Positions 4,899 to 61,800 of a DNA stretch of 64,000 bases are shown here, one piece after another. Every line of letters begins with the position of its first letter. The stretch's first letter is position 1. The position numbers and the translations under genes are program-made. A model generated the notes under the pieces. The model was not told the origin of the DNA. It did not search any database and saw only the letters and a list, made by a program, of their open reading frames with translations. The DNA comes from Nocardia sp. SYP-A9097 (GTDB lineage Bacteria; Actinomycetota; Actinomycetes; Mycobacteriales; Mycobacteriaceae): positions 186,001 to 250,000 of the forward strand of contig NZ_WJIC01000005.1 of NCBI RefSeq assembly GCF_009649815.1, read 5' to 3'.

Positions 4899-6619
4899 TG
4901 GCCGAACTCTCCCGCGCCCGCTACGCCCAACTGTTCGGGCCCACCACCGGCGATCGAATTCGCCTGGCGGACACCGATTTGCTGATCGAGATCACCGAAG
5001 ACCGCAGTGGCGGACCGGGACTCGCCGGTGACGAGGCCGTCTTCGGTGGCGGCAAGGTGCTGCGCGAATCCATGGGTCAGGCGCGCGCCACCCGCGCCGA
5101 GGGCACCCCCGATACCGTCATCACCGGCGTGGTGATCGTCGATCACTGGGGAATCATCAAGGCCGACATCGGTATTCGCGACGGCCGCATCAGCGCCATC
5201 GGCAAGGCCGGGAATCCCGACACCATGACCGGCGTGCATCCGGACTTGGTGGTCGGCCCGTCGACGGAGATCATCGCGGGCAATGGCCGCATCGTCACCG
5301 CCGGCGCCATCGACTGCCACGTTCACTTCATCTGCCCGCAGATCCTGGACGAGGCCATCGGCAGCGGCATCACCACCCTCGTGGGCGGCGGTACGGGACC
5401 GGCCGAGGGCTCCAAGGCCACGACCGTCACCCCGGGCGCGTGGCATCTGGGCCGTATGCTGGAGGCCACCGACGGCTGGCCGATGAATATCGTGCTGCTC
5501 GGCAAGGGTAATACCGTGCGTCCCGAGGCCATGTGGGAGCAATTGCGCGGCGGCGCAGCGGGTTTCAAACTGCATGAGGACTGGGGCACCACCCCGGCGG
5601 CCATCGACGCCTGCCTCACCGTCGCCGATGCTTCGGGCGTGCAGGTGGCCCTGCACACGGACACCTTGAACGAGGCCGGATTCGTGGAGGACACCCTCGC
5701 GGCGATTCGCGGACGGGCCATCCACTCGTATCACACCGAGGGTGCGGGCGGCGGGCACGCGCCCGACATCATCACTGTCGCTTCGTATTCGAACGTGCTG
5801 CCGAGTTCGACCAATCCGACCCGGCCGCACACCGTCAATACTCTCGACGAGCATCTGGACATGCTCATGGTGTGCCATCACCTGAGCCCGTCGATTCCCG
5901 AGGATCTGGCCTTCGCGGAGAGCCGGATTCGCCCCTCCACCATTGCCGCCGAGGATCTGCTGCACGATCTGGGCGCGATCTCCATGATCGGCAGTGACTC
6001 CCAGGCCATGGGCCGCATCGGCGAGGTGATCATGCGCACCTGGCAGACCGCGCACGTCATGAAGAAGCGGCGCGGCGCGCTCGCGGGAGATGGTGCGGCG
6101 GACAACAATCGGGTACAGCGGTACGTCGCCAAGTACACGATCTGCCCGGCCGTCGCGCACGGCCTCGACCATGAGATCGGCTCCATCGAGGTCGGCAAGC
6201 TCGGCGATCTGGTGCTGTGGGAACCGGCCTTCTTCGGTGTGCGGCCGCACGCCGTGCTCAAGGGCGGCACCATCGCCTGGGCCGCCATGGGCGATGCGAA
6301 TGCCTCCATTCCGGCACCGCAGCCGGTGCTGCCGCGGCCCATGTTCGGCGCGGCTCCGGCGGTGGCGGCGAGCACCTCGCTGCACTTCGTCTCCGAAGCC
6401 GCCATCGAGGACGGGCTCGCCGAGCGCCTGCGGGTGAATCGAAAACTGGTGCCGGTGGCCAATGTTCGCAGGCGCACCAAGGCCGATATGCCGCACAACG
6501 ACGCCATGCCGCGCATCGAGGTGGATCCCGATACCTTCACGGTCCGCATCGACGGTGAGGTGTGGGCGGAGCAGCCCGCCACCGAACTGCCGATGGCGCA
6601 GCGGTACTTCCTGTTCTGA
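4898..6619 (+). CDS. ureC: Urease subunit alpha (catalytic, di-nickel)
   Basis: This is the catalytic subunit, 573 residues. It starts [19 protein letters not shown] and shows the nickel-binding DCHVHFICP segment near residue 136, the carbamylated lysine in [11 protein letters not shown] near residue 220, further ligands in LHTDTLNE and [16 protein letters not shown], and the flap cysteine and histidine in [10 protein letters not shown] near residue 323. All expected metal and catalytic residues are present, so the subunit should be active once nickel is loaded by the UreF/G/D chaperones encoded about 8.4 kb downstream. Nothing is truncated. Confidence 0.98.
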
Positions 6620-58101: not shown

Positions 58102-58923
58102 ATGCCCAATCCTCAGATCACCTCTCCCGCATTCATCTCCGTCGGCGATCTCGGTGACGGGTTCGCCGCCGACAACAACACCTTGACGTGGTCCCGCGAG
58201 CTACCCGGCAGGCGGATGCGGCTCGAGTTCGACAACGACGTGCTGGAAGTAGCGATCATGGGTGACGGAATCCTGGAATGGGCAGGTCCGAACTCGCGTG
58301 GGACTGCGGCCTTCCGTGAGACATCCATCCGGCCGGGGATCTTCCTCGTTGACTACACGATCGAGGGCGCGGCGAAGGAATCGGTAACCCTCGTCCTGGA
58401 CATCGGGCAGAACCTGGTCACTCGCGTGGTCGGTACCCTGCCCACGAGCGAGGATGCGGAGACGAGCGCGTACACGAGGGCCCGGGAGGGATTGCCCCTC
58501 ACCGCGGTCGAGACCGAGATCACGCATGGGCGCATTGCGTCGGACGGTTCGGCGGTATCAGCTTTGCACGCGGCAACCGACGAGCTGATCGGCAAGCGGG
58601 TGCTCTACACTTACAGCCCCACCGAACTGTACGAACACATCTACCTCAACCCGCACTTCTACACGTGGCACTGCATCGACGGCGTCGAGAAGGGACTCGC
58701 GGACACCGATCGATGCCACTACTTCAAGATCGCGGAGAACCTGTTCCTGTTCGTGTGGCGGGAGAAAATCGTCCCGACGCTGGGGGTCGTCCTGGTTGAC
58801 CTCGATCGAATGAAGACCGACGGAAAGATCTTCGGCTACAAGGGTTTCACATTCGACGAGATCTCCAACTTCCCCATCGGGGCATACGCCGAGATTCGCG
58901 GCGTCACCCCAGCTTTGGCCTGA
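58102..58923 (+). CDS. moaF: MoaF-family protein
   Basis: The 273-residue soluble protein has two related halves of the MoaF family. The N-terminal half has FAADNNTLTWSRELPGRRMR, LEFDNDVLEVAIMGDGILEW and YTIEGAAKESVTLVLD. The C-terminal half has IGKRVLYTYSPTELYEHIYL, FYTWHCIDGVEKGLADTDRC and REKIVPTLGVVLVDLDRMK. Despite the name, the founding member is from the Klebsiella monoamine (tyramine oxidase) regulon, where it sits with an SDR gene. Here an SDR, an amine/amino acid permease and an aromatic-ring dioxygenase remnant are nearby. It probably binds a small aromatic ligand. Confidence 0.85.
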   Translation: MPNPQITSPAFISVGDLGDGFAADNNTLTWSRELPGRRMRLEFDNDVLEVAIMGDGILEWAGPNSRGTAAFRETSIRPGIFLVDYTIEGAAKESVTLVLDIGQNLVTRVVGTLPTSEDAETSAYTRAREGLPLTAVETEITHGRIASDGSAVSALHAATDELIGKRVLYTYSPTELYEHIYLNPHFYTWHCIDGVEKGLADTDRCHYFKIAENLFLFVWREKIVPTLGVVLVDLDRMKTDGKIFGYKGFTFDEISNFPIGAYAEIRGVTPALA

Positions 58924-58950: not shown

Positions 58951-59135
58951 GAGGGTTTCTCTGTAATCGTCAAGACCCCACGGCGTTCGAACATCGCCTC
59001 ATTCTTGGTGCGGGCTGGCGAGGGTTCCTGTGTGTGTGCTGTCAAGCCCAGGATTGTTCGAACACCGGTCTAAAGATCTCGGTGCGGGTCGACGAGGGTT
59101 CCTCTGTGTTCGTCAAGTAGGAATCTCGTTCGAAC
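58951..59135. repeat. Three degenerate tandem repeats (~70 bp) with GTTCGAAC palindromes
   Basis: Three units share a block GAGGGTTyCT (58951, 59020, 59094), a GTCAAG about 20 bp later, and the palindrome GTTCGAAC (58985-58992, 59056-59063, 59128-59135). Units 2 and 3 also share GGTGCGGG before the first block. The period is 69-74 bp. The array ends exactly where the group II intron reverse-transcriptase fragment begins. It fits neither a CRISPR (spacing, degeneracy) nor a tRNA. Confidence 0.75.
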
Positions 59136-59142
59136 GCCGGGG

Positions 59143-59748
59143 CCGCCGAACGCCGACGACTTCCTCGTCCTGGTCCATGGGAGCAAGGACGATACCGAGG
59201 CGATACGAGAACAGGTCGAGCAGATGCTTTCGCCTCTGGGACTTCGGCTTTCGCCGGAGAAAACACAGGTGCGGCATCTGTCGAACGGGATCGACTTCTT
59301 GGGATTCCACATCCAGTGGCGTCGCAAGCGTGGCTCGGACAAACGATTCGTTTACACCTTCATCGGTGACCGGCCCATCCGGTCGCTGAAGGCGAAAGTC
59401 CGTGCCCTGACCCATCGGCAGTCACAGCAGAGTCTGGAATACGTGATCATGCGGCTCAACCAGATTATGCGCGGCTGGTCCAACTACTTCAAACATGCCG
59501 TGGCCAAACGGCGGTTCGCCGTGCTCCAGAAGTTCGTATGGAGACGGCTCATCGCGATGTTGCAGACCCGGCACCGCTGGAGCTGGACGGATATCCGCCG
59601 CCGGTTCGTCACACCTGTTGGGCGGTGGCGACCAATCGCGGCGGCGGACGGGACCGAGTTGTTCGACCTGAACAGCGTGACCGTCAGTCGTTATCGCTGG
59701 CGCGGCAACAAGATCCCGAACCGATGGGCGACCCTTCAATCAGCCTGA
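59143..59748 (+). pseudogene. Group II intron reverse transcriptase/maturase, 5'-truncated
   Basis: The frame begins inside the catalytic ADDFLVLVHGSKDDTEAI (the YADD box, with Asn before ADD), continues through LRLSPEKTQVRHLSNGIDFL, GFHIQWRRK, the maturase domain X (LNQIMRGWSNYFKHAVAKRR, FAVLQKFVWRRLIAML) and ends at the normal stop. All of the fingers and half of the palm are missing, so it cannot splice or reverse-transcribe. The downstream RNA domains are still present. Confidence 0.88.
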
Positions 59749-59765
59749 CGGGGAGAAACCGTGGA

Positions 59766-59858
59766 GAGCCCGTTGCGTCGAGAGGCGCACGGCGGGTTCG
59801 GCGAGAGGTCCGGGGAAACGGAGCAGGAGCAATCCCGCCACCGCGCCCCGGGCCTACT
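59766..59858 (+). ncRNA. Group II intron domains V and VI (3' end of intron)
   Basis: 59766-59799 is a canonical 34-nt domain V: it opens GAGCCCG and closes CGGGTTC (one G-T pair), has the inner stem TGCGTC/GGCGCA capped by a GAGA tetraloop, and a CG bulge on the 3' strand. The AGC catalytic triad is intact. Domain VI and the 3' splice site should lie in the following 60 bases, ending near GCCTACTC (59852-59859); that limit is approximate. Confidence 0.8.
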
Positions 59859-59882
59859 CAGCGATGCGGTTGGCCGAGCTGC

Positions 59883-60335
59883 TCAGTCACTCAACAGGAT
59901 TCGCTTTCGGAGAAGGTCCGGTTTCGCGCGCCCGAACATCTGGCGTTTGATCGTCTTGATGCGGTTGACGTGACCTTCGACCGGTCCGCTGCTCCAGGGC
60001 AGCGTCAGGCCGGCGGTGACCGCATCGAGGTCGCGGCGCAAGCCCCGGACGAACGAGTGCAGAGCCGGGAAGTTGTGGGCGTCAACGGCTTTCATCCAAT
60101 GCTCGAGTTCGCGCCCGCGGAGGTGACGCATGATCGTGGCAAAGGCGCGGACGTGACCGGTCAAGTCGGTGAGCTCAGGGCTCGAGGCCAGGATCACGTC
60201 GAGCCGTTGCCGATTGTCGGGAGCGAGGTTGGCGGGGTCGGTCATGATCCAGGTGACGACCCGGCGAACCGAGGGCGGCTTGTGGACCGGGCGGGGAATC
60301 TGGCCGGTCGCGCGGAAGGGCTGCAGGTAGTTCAT
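59883..60335 (-). pseudogene. ISL3-family transposase, C-terminal part
   Basis: This is the 3' half of a longer open frame. NYLQPFRATGQIPRPVHKPP, VRAFATIMRHLRGRELEHW, FPALHSFVRGLRRDLDAVTA and WSSGPVEGHVNRIKTIKRQM, FGRAKPDLLRKRILLSD are the C-terminal half of ISL3 DDE transposases, with the catalytic Glu in GPVEGHVN. The zinc finger, helix-turn-helix and first catalytic Asp are absent. It joins in frame to an unrelated transposase piece at about 60336. Confidence 0.85.
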
Positions 60336-60900
60336 GACGATCCGAGGGCTGACGCGGGTCCGGCGGGCCGGTAGGAGTTGGGTCAGGACGCGGCCGATCG
60401 CGCCGATCAGGTCGATTCGGGTGGCGGTGGCATCGGCCATGGCGGTGCGCAGGGCTTGGTAGGTGACCAGCAAGGCGTAGACCTGCTGCTCGACCCCGGC
60501 CGGGGTGCGGGCGCGCAGCACCCGCCCGCCCAGGATGCTGGATTTCAGTTCCAGGTAGCAGGTTTCGATTTCCCGGCGCTGGTGGTAGAGCTCGACGATC
60601 TCGGTGGCCGGGAACCGTCGGTGATCAGTGAGGGTGGTCGGCAGGCGGTAACGGCCGACGTGGTGTTTGCGGTGGTGTTTCCCGGTGCCGGTGACGGTGA
60701 TCTCAGCGGCGATGACACGCAGCCTCACCCCGTCGAGAACGGTCAGGTAAGAGCCGTCCGGGCAACGCCCGATCCGGGCGAGCGTGCGGTTGTCCTTGCA
60801 GCGGATGTATGACGCTCCGGCTGTCGCGGCACGCGCCGACATCAGATACTGATTGATCGACTCGATGGTTCGGCGCGGCGGCTTGAACAGGGCCGAACCC
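60336..60900 (-). pseudogene. IS4-family transposase, C-terminal part, fused in frame to ISL3 piece
   Basis: The 5' half of the same frame reads GASYIRCKDNRTLARIGRCP, GKHHRKHHVGRYRLPTTLTD, then ELYHQRREIETCYLELKSSI, which carries the exact IS4 signature Tyr-x2-Arg-x3-Glu-x6-Lys, and ILGGRVLRARTPAGVEQQVY. It ends at LLPARRTRVSPRIV, where IS4 proteins normally continue with a different tail. The N-terminal catalytic Asp residues are lost. The composite frame is 411 codons long and would be miscalled as one transposase. Confidence 0.85.
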
Positions 60901-60903
60901 GCG

Positions 60904-60970
60904 CGTGCGGGTTCACCCTTCCAGTCCGTGCCGTTCCAATACCTCAGAAAACCTTCGTCTTCAGGGCCTT
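60904..60970 (-). other. DUF2510-like scrap upstream of the IS4 fragment
   Basis: In the same minus-strand frame, EDEGFLRYWNGTDWKGEPA resembles the DUF2510 motif (RYWDGxxWT) seen at the N-terminus of many actinobacterial membrane proteins. It continues directly into the IS4 fragment. It appears to be debris from an interrupted gene, making this a join of three unrelated pieces. Confidence 0.45.
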
Positions 60971-61086
60971 GCACCAGTCCGCCGCCGGCTCCACATGGTC
61001 CTGATCGACCTTGAGAAGAGGCGGCGGGTCTGGCTACTCGGTCGGTCCGCACTCGCAACTGCCCATCGAGCACAAGGATCTTGGTC

Positions 61087-61800
61087 CTACACCTCGAGTC
61101 GGTCGCCCGTACTGCCAAGGGCAGAGGTGCTGTGCGGCGGCGAACAGGCTACCAACTCGGTGCGAAGCGGGCAATCGGTGAGTGCGCGGACGGTGTCCAC
61201 GCTCACTCCGGGGGCCAGTTCGACCAATTCGAGTCCATCGGTCGTCACGTCGATGACGGCGAGATCGGTGATGATGCGGTTCACTACCGCCAGCCCGGTT
61301 ATCGGAAGCGAACACTTCGAGACGATCTTCGGCGAGCCGTCCTTCGCGACGTGCTCCATCAGCACGATCACCTTCCGGACGCCGTGGACCAGATCCATCG
61401 CACCGCCCATGCCCTTGACCATCGCTCCGGGCACCATCCAGTTGGCCAGATCGCCGGTGGCGGAGACCTGCATGCCGCCGAGGACGGCAACGTCGATATG
61501 GCCACCGCGGATCATCGCGAAACTTTGCGCGGAGTCGAACAAGGCTGCGCCGGCAAGCAGGGTTATGGTCTCCTTGCCCGCGTTGATGAGGTCCGGATCG
61601 ACCTCCTCCTCCGACGGGTACGGTCCCATGCCGAGGATGCCGTTCTCGCTGTGCAGAATGACGTGCACGTCATCGGGTACATAGTTCGGGACAAGGGTCG
61701 GCAAGCCGATGCCCAGGTTGACGTATTGACCATCGTCGAGCTCGGCCGCCGCGCGAGCTGCCATCTGTTGCCTGTTCCATCCGATGTGCGCTGTCGTCAC
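61087..61800 (-). CDS. scoB: 3-oxoacid CoA-transferase subunit B
   Basis: Subunit B of a succinyl-CoA:3-ketoacid (acetoacetate) CoA transferase, 237 residues. [35 protein letters not shown], and [20 protein letters not shown], where the Glu of SENG is the catalytic thioester residue, are followed by [20 protein letters not shown] and [20 protein letters not shown]. The last 18 residues (after TELVAC) do not look like the family and may come from the adjacent transposon debris. GTG at 61800 overlaps the subunit A stop. Confidence 0.92.

What the first reader, a model, noticed from the sequence alone, without database searches (positions are those of the whole stretch)
58951..59142. Three ~70-bp tandem repeats with GTTCGAAC leading into a truncated group II intron
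Each unit has GAGGGTT..., GTCAAG and the 8-bp palindrome GTTCGAAC at conserved distances (35-37 bp). The array stops where the reverse-transcriptase fragment begins, so the break point may lie in one of the repeats. They could be recombination sites, a decayed attC-like or repeat array, or an RNA element duplicated three times. I know of no named family that fits.
Basis: seen in the sequence. Interest (0 to 1): 0.55.

Follow-up and report, generated by a model that had tools for sequence, protein, structure and literature searches.

The report
Stacked ends of RNA-guided transposons
The three repeats are the broken-off right ends of three jumping genes of the IS110 family, which choose their landing site with a guide RNA; each probably landed inside a hairpin carried by the one before, so the elements piled up at one spot.

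Summary
The repeats are real: units start at 58951, 59020 and 59094, and nothing else in the 9.05 Mb genome fits the three-part motif. They are not an RNA gene or a simple tandem duplication. Relatives on Rhodococcus plasmids and in Rhodococcus, Prescottella, Nocardia and Williamsia genomes show that each unit is the right end (RE) of an IS110-family transposon. In 13 of 25 related loci an IS110 recombinase gene or fragment lies downstream on the opposite strand, with different passenger genes between. The left end encodes a predicted bridge RNA: its donor guides tend to follow the unit's own tips, and its target guides spell GAGGG^AAGC. Empty sites confirm the boundaries at two loci. The unusual part: most REs (17 of 25) carry a terminator-like hairpin with GGGAAGC in its loop, the unit's own target. 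In the window the half-hairpins of units 1 and 2 run straight into the next RE at this point, as in one plasmid array. The array therefore probably records serial insertion; a group II intron fragment, starting by 59150, cuts unit 3. Known family, new variant; nothing was tested at the bench.

The parts
58951..59019 (+). RE unit 1: GAGGG^TTTCTCTGTAATCGTCAAG..GTTCGAAC.. ending in hairpin 5' arm 59007-59019
59020..59093 (+). RE unit 2 (donor tip TTCCTGTGTG), ending in hairpin 5' arm 59081-59093; inferred to be inserted in the hairpin loop of unit 1
   Evidence: (model R1, 28.3 bits)
59094..59149 (+). RE unit 3 (donor tip TTCCTCTGTG, a different donor type), cut before its hairpin; inferred to be inserted in the hairpin loop of unit 2
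   Evidence: (34.5 bits)
58969..58974 (-). GTCAAG, read backwards CTTGAC: possible -35 box of a circle-junction promoter (also 59041-59046 and 59112-59117)
   Evidence: sequence; role inferred by analogy with IS621
58985..58992 (.). GTTCGAAC palindrome (also 59056-59063 and 59128-59135); the LE of relatives also has one; role unknown
59150..59748 (+). 5'-truncated group II intron reverse transcriptase/maturase (GIIM domain), neighbour, not part of the system
59764..59862 (+). 3' end of the same intron (Rfam Intron_gpII)

Best explanation
Each repeat is the right end (RE) of an IS110-family, bridge-RNA-guided transposon. A complete unit in relatives reads: RE (GAGGG^TTCCTGTG..TGTCAAG..GTTCGAAC..terminator-like hairpin), passenger gene(s), IS110 recombinase gene on the opposite strand, and a left end (LE) with a predicted bridge RNA. 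The target guides of that RNA spell GAGGG^AAGC, and this sequence, or one close to it, also forms the loop of the unit's own RE hairpin. In the window unit 2 landed in the hairpin loop of unit 1, and unit 3 in that of unit 2. The right-hand parts of all three were later lost, and a group II intron fragment now cuts unit 3. Shown by sequence: RE identity, link to the recombinase, boundaries at two empty sites, guide agreement, and joins at the loop point. Inferred: order of insertion, loss of the right halves, activity of the RNA, terminator function of the hairpin, promoter across the circle junction.
For: (1) An IS110 recombinase gene or fragment (DEDD_Tnp_IS110 plus Transposase_20) lies downstream, opposite strand, in 13 of 25 loci, nearest piece at +0.66 to +3.5 kb. 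(2) Empty sites: the joined flanks of L060 match G292 over 343 of 345 bases at 97%; those of L058 match G342 over all 345 at 92% and, with small gaps, G261 at 80%; the G292 site lies inside one open frame that crosses the insertion point. (3) LE RNA, 10 sequences: hand-picked helices 92.9% paired, 8 double-change cells, 0 of 500 shuffles reach either; slid versions reach at most 55.8%. (4) Left donor guide against RE tip: 78 matches over 8 units, reached by 48 of 40320 permutations. The right donor guide changes with the LE tip in L002 and L058 (AAGCCGG/CCGGCTT against AAGTCGG/CCGACTT). (5) GCTTCC and AGAGGGT are present in 10 of 10 LEs. Insertion points read GAGGG^AAGC exactly in 3 of 8 units and differ at one or two bases in 5. 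(6) Arrays: window, and L002/L003; in L055 an LE is followed by AAGCGTCGACCTGCACC, a hairpin 3' arm. (7) Unit 3 is closest to the second L002 unit (86%), unit 2 to L061 and L060 (82%), unit 1 to L061 and L053 (75%).
Against: No recombinase, LE or hairpin 3' arm that would complete the window units was found in this genome: best recombinase relative 57% identical on another contig; LE search empty, which the tool says shows little without a positive control; the 3'-arm pattern gave 12 places, each with 3 mismatches, against 5 for the control. So nesting in the window is read from left halves alone. 12 of 25 loci show no recombinase in the stretch held, and some of the 13 hold only scraps (L054: 26 residues). 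Guide agreement is not clean: in 2 of 8 units (L002, L055) another unit's guide fits better than its own; for L002 and L061 I took the RE that fits better; L005, L011 and L032 are near copies; so the permutation counts flatter the result. In one search a third measure, pair types, is reached by 91 of 500 shuffles. In L055 the left flank does not form a clean hairpin with the flank of the inner LE. The terminator scan did not pass the L005 hairpin. No empty site for the window was found.
Confidence: 0.83

Rival explanations
1. RE remnants as above, but multiplied by ordinary tandem duplication or unequal crossing-over between GAGGG of the tip and GAGGG of the hairpin loop, not by nested insertion.
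For: The same GAGGG lies at the tip and in the loop, so a slip would give the same joins. L055 shows that such arrays can recombine.
Against: No window unit is among the 12 closest relatives of another; units 2 and 3 have different donor tips (CTGTGTG, CTCTGTG), each found elsewhere. The L055 left end followed by a hairpin 3' arm is expected from insertion, not from duplication.
Confidence: 0.12
2. A small regulatory RNA gene with its own terminator, repeated in tandem; the IS110 genes are chance neighbours.
For: Homology starts sharply at GAGGG, ends in a terminator-like hairpin, and an SOS-box-like motif lies about 50 bases upstream in 8 stored loci: L005, L011, L013, L019 and L014-L017.
Against: The empty sites show that the repeat enters and leaves with the recombinase. 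Recombinase always downstream and opposite where present. No Rfam match on the repeats.
Confidence: 0.04
3. The repeat encodes a short peptide (GAGGG as ribosome site, GTG start, ..VRT..).
For: Several units keep a frame from GTG to GTT-CGA-ACA (reading by eye).
Against: One-base indels between near-identical copies (L005, L011, L012) break the frame; unit 1 of the window has TAA at that place.
Confidence: 0.01

Closest known systems
IS110-family insertion sequences with bridge RNA, e.g. IS621 (Durrant et al. 2024, PMC11208160; passages seen)
   Same: Recombinase domains, long LE with structured RNA, left/right target and donor guides that include the core, scarless insertion
   Different: Core read here as GG (CC on the recombinase strand), not CT; passenger genes between recombinase and RE; a terminator-like hairpin near the RE tip that usually holds the unit's own target
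IS110/IS1111 seekRNA elements (Siddiquee et al. 2024, PMC11187229; start of abstract and passages seen)
   Same: Guide RNA with matches to both target strands; that paper shows that a cargo gene can be carried
   Different: The cargo there was engineered; here natural genes lie in the unit. In the main text 'passenger' occurs 0 times and 'terminator' 3 times; the terminator passages I saw concern plasmid design
IS elements that target REP palindromes (PMC1525189, listing and start of abstract) and IS4321/IS5075, which target Tn21 ends (title in a reference list)
   Same: Target inside a palindrome, or in the end of another mobile element
   Different: Here the palindrome with the target is carried by the element itself, so copies can land in each other
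IS110 cousin in the same genome (L062, 57% identical recombinase)
   Same: RE with CCTCTGTATCTGTCAAG and LE with ATAAGTCGAC, read by eye
   Different: RE ends right after the recombinase gene; no passenger, hairpin or GTTCGAAC seen there by eye

Membership tests
IS110 family | DEDD_Tnp_IS110 plus Transposase_20 recombinase in the same mobile unit | tested here: met
   Met in relatives: domains in L002, gene or fragment in 13 of 25 loci. Not met by the window copy itself, which has none near by
IS110 family | Structured non-coding RNA in the LE with guides that match target and donor | tested here: met
   10 LE sequences of relatives; agreement with exceptions
IS110 family | Scarless insertion at a fixed site without target duplication | tested here: met
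   Two insertion sites
IS110 family | Promoter rebuilt across RE-LE in the circle | tested here: inconclusive
   CTTGAC(A/G) in the RE read backwards; no clear -10 at standard spacing (by eye)
IS110 family | Recombinase binds the RNA and joins donor and target | not testable with these tools
   needs the bench
Integron attC array | attC sites with an integron integrase | not tested
   no integrase or attC search was made
Known RNA family | Rfam 15 match on the repeats | tested here: not met
   2 matches in the window (5060-5351 and 59764-59862), none on the repeats
Simple tandem duplication | Units closer to each other than to outside units | tested here: not met

The most novel reading that the evidence does not exclude
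These IS110 transposons carry their own landing pad. A copy of the bridge-RNA target sits in the loop of a terminator hairpin near the RE tip, so an insertion into a host terminator hands the host a new terminator and the next element a new target. Elements with different passenger genes then stack at one harmless site, a guide-RNA counterpart of cassette accretion, and two IS110 types even share the site.
Probability: 0.4. Interest if true: 0.75.

Novelty: new variant of a known kind. Interest (0 to 1): 0.56.

Why it matters
Bridge-RNA recombinases are studied as programmable DNA writers. A natural lineage that carries passenger genes, and offers its own target in its end, would show how such elements can move and accumulate genes, and gives ready-made pairs of guide, donor and target to test. 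It also explains a class of orphan repeats in Rhodococcus and Nocardia that carry no annotated feature in the plasmid records seen.

Tried and rejected
Small RNA gene: suggested by the hairpin and the SOS-box-like motifs; dropped when copies proved to enter and leave with a recombinase gene. Short peptide: dropped because one-base indels shift the frame. Tandem duplication: see rivals. My first reading of L002, that the LE belongs to unit 2 there, was changed: guide and flank fit unit 1 somewhat better. Likewise the LE of L061 was paired with its second RE. Both choices were made after seeing the data.

Rows dropped before counts. One search gave 10 of 150 genomes; I kept own, L020, L021 and L022 and judged the other six (L024-L029) chance from their alignments. 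One search gave 8 stretches; L030 and L031 (Bradyrhizobium, Nitrospirae) judged chance. One search gave 13 places in 11 of 401 genomes; L048 judged chance. The 25 loci leave out L003 and L019 (copies of L002 and L013), L018 (cut at a record end) and shorter versions of the same loci. They are not independent: L014-L017 share a context, as do L021, L022 and L059, and L005 and L011 share the left flank. Several loci were found with a pattern that contains the hairpin loop, so 17 of 25 loops with GGGAAGC is biased upward. The other 8 have variants or diverged loops.

Searches without use: phages (no match), viral contigs, terminator scan, MoaF flank in 148 genus genomes (own only). L010 was a chance match. 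Structure prediction was not used.

Full report
What is there. Units start at 58951, 59020 and 59094, 27 bases after the stop codon of a MoaF gene (58102-58923, domains). The three-part motif is found nowhere else in the genome, nor with the reversed control, nor in the other 117 genus genomes of that call. The window genome shares its genus with G137, whose copy L021 is identical over the element to L033, Nocardia flavorosea, so the window is most likely Nocardia.

Relatives. DNA searches found copies only on Rhodococcus plasmids (4 records, 12). A covariance model added three Nocardia copies at one site. A pattern scan of 84,980 genomes added Rhodococcus (3 stretches, one with two copies), Prescottella (1), Nocardia (1) and Williamsia (1), besides two judged chance. 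A hairpin pattern gave 13 places in 11 of 401 family genomes. No copy was found in viral contigs or phages with the queries used.

From repeat to transposon end. Similarity between copies starts abruptly at GAGGG, and 7 loci shared a second, distant block, an IS110 recombinase gene. With longer flanks, 13 of 25 loci have the gene or a fragment downstream on the opposite strand. L011 also has a 24-residue scrap on the same strand as the repeat. Different genes lie between. Domain searches gave an acyltransferase in L002, beside an annotated TetR gene. They gave DUF389 in L060, a maltose-type acetyltransferase in L061, a GNAT acetyltransferase in L057, DUF1254 in L054 and a bile-acid-symporter-type transporter in L055. 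I read the neighbouring L055 genes as an arsenic cluster by eye only.

Boundaries. The far end of the unit is ..CATACAAGTCGG. Joining the flanks of L060 gives a sequence that G292 holds uninterrupted (343 of 345 bases, 97%). Of 6 genomes searched, 3 matched: the carrier, G292, and one 58-base match. In G292 the site lies within one open frame, so this insertion is inside a gene. The joined flanks of L058 are uninterrupted in G342 (345 of 345, 92%) and in G261 (80%, small gaps). G289 and G301 cross the join by 15-20 bases, and the others that matched stop before it (14 of 14 matched somewhere). In G342 this site is CGGCCCGGAGGGAATTCCCTCCGGGCCG, a hairpin 29 bases after a stop codon (sequence). 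No target duplication is seen.

Target in hairpins. Flanks of L005, L011 and L058 rebuild perfect stems of 11, 8 and 14 pairs around the insertion point; the other five units of the set give 5-9. Over 8 units, own flanks pair better than swapped ones (duplex energy: 86 of 40320 permutations as low; strict stem length: 282 of 40320). Some swapped sets do better still, and the partners for L002, L055 and L061 were chosen after the fact. Because L060 sits in a gene with a weak stem, I do not claim that the hairpin is needed.

Bridge RNA. Ten LE sequences align over 270 columns. RNAalifold gives 73 pairs, 11 with a double change. Hand-picked helices hold 92.9% of cells paired, with 8 double-change cells (0 of 500 shuffles for both) and 5 pairs with a double change (3 of 500). 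Pair types are no more than shuffles often give (91 of 500), and one of the 27 pairs never forms. The helices came from this alignment, which favours them. Target guides GCTTCC and AGAGGGT are in 10 of 10. Following the scheme of Durrant et al. (passages), they predict GAGGG^AAGC: exact in L005, L011 and L061, one or two differences in L002, L032, L055, L058 and L060. Donor guides: own RE scores best or tied best in 6 of 8 units; in L002 and L055 another unit's guide scores one more.

The array. In relatives the RE hairpin reads GGTGCGGGTCGAT-GAGGGAAGC-GTCGACCCGCACC or similar. GGGAAGC is exact in 17 of 25. In the window the 5' arm is followed by GAGGGTTCC.., that is, by the next RE. The same join occurs in L002 and, identically, in L003. 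In L055 an LE is followed by AAGCGTCGACCTGCACC, the other half of such a hairpin, and a second LE with recombinase scraps follows, as expected if one unit sat in another. Only one RE remains there, which I read as recombination between two REs. A second IS110 type in L053, L055 and L056 (domains) has its ends at GAGGGTTC-CT in the RE tip, so this end is itself a target for another element; that core is my reading.

What the window lacks. The recombinase search of the genome gave 4 places, best 57% identical, on another contig. LE and 3'-arm searches gave nothing convincing. The array is a relic. Intron similarity begins at about 59150 in most rows listed.

Not explained. GTTCGAAC lies near both tips of the unit, so two copies would flank the junction in a circle; I could not assign it. 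The TGTCAAG motif read backwards is a good -35 box, but no clear -10 follows.

In print. Seven paper searches (open-licence PMC papers only) listed no paper whose title or abstract start describes natural IS110 units with passengers and their own target hairpin. I saw passages of PMC11208160, PMC11187229 and PMC7371123 (its passengers are in Tn3 elements). IS databases were not searched.

Noticed in passing
L005 3953, L011 2951, L013 and L019 2951, L014-L017 2954: An SOS-box-like motif (TCGAACN4(A/G)TTCGA type) lies about 50 bases upstream of the RE in 8 stored loci (about three independent contexts) and nowhere else on the stored strand of the loci held then or of the window. Unexplained.
   Followed up: partly
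L053, L055, L056, upstream of the RE: A second IS110 type (DEDD_Tnp_IS110) with its own ends GAGGGTTCCTAATTGATT and CTTAGCRAACTGAGATGT appears to be inserted in the RE tip of the first type.
   Followed up: partly
L055 +100 to +3530 from the RE: What looks by eye like an arsenic-resistance gene cluster lies as passenger between RE and recombinase fragment (transporter domain).
   Followed up: partly
window 59883-61118, minus strand: DDE transposase gene (DDE_Tnp_ISL3 and DDE_Tnp_1) directly after the intron fragment.
   Followed up: no
window 5060-5351, minus strand: Rfam match to 5_ureB_sRNA (RF02514, 67.3 bits).
   Followed up: no
L035, two REs 475 bases apart: Two right ends of different donor type next to each other; the LE guide fits the inner one better (10 against 9 of 13).
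   Followed up: partly
L034 7394: A Williamsia copy begins inside what looks by eye like a 13E12-type HNH endonuclease gene.
   Followed up: no
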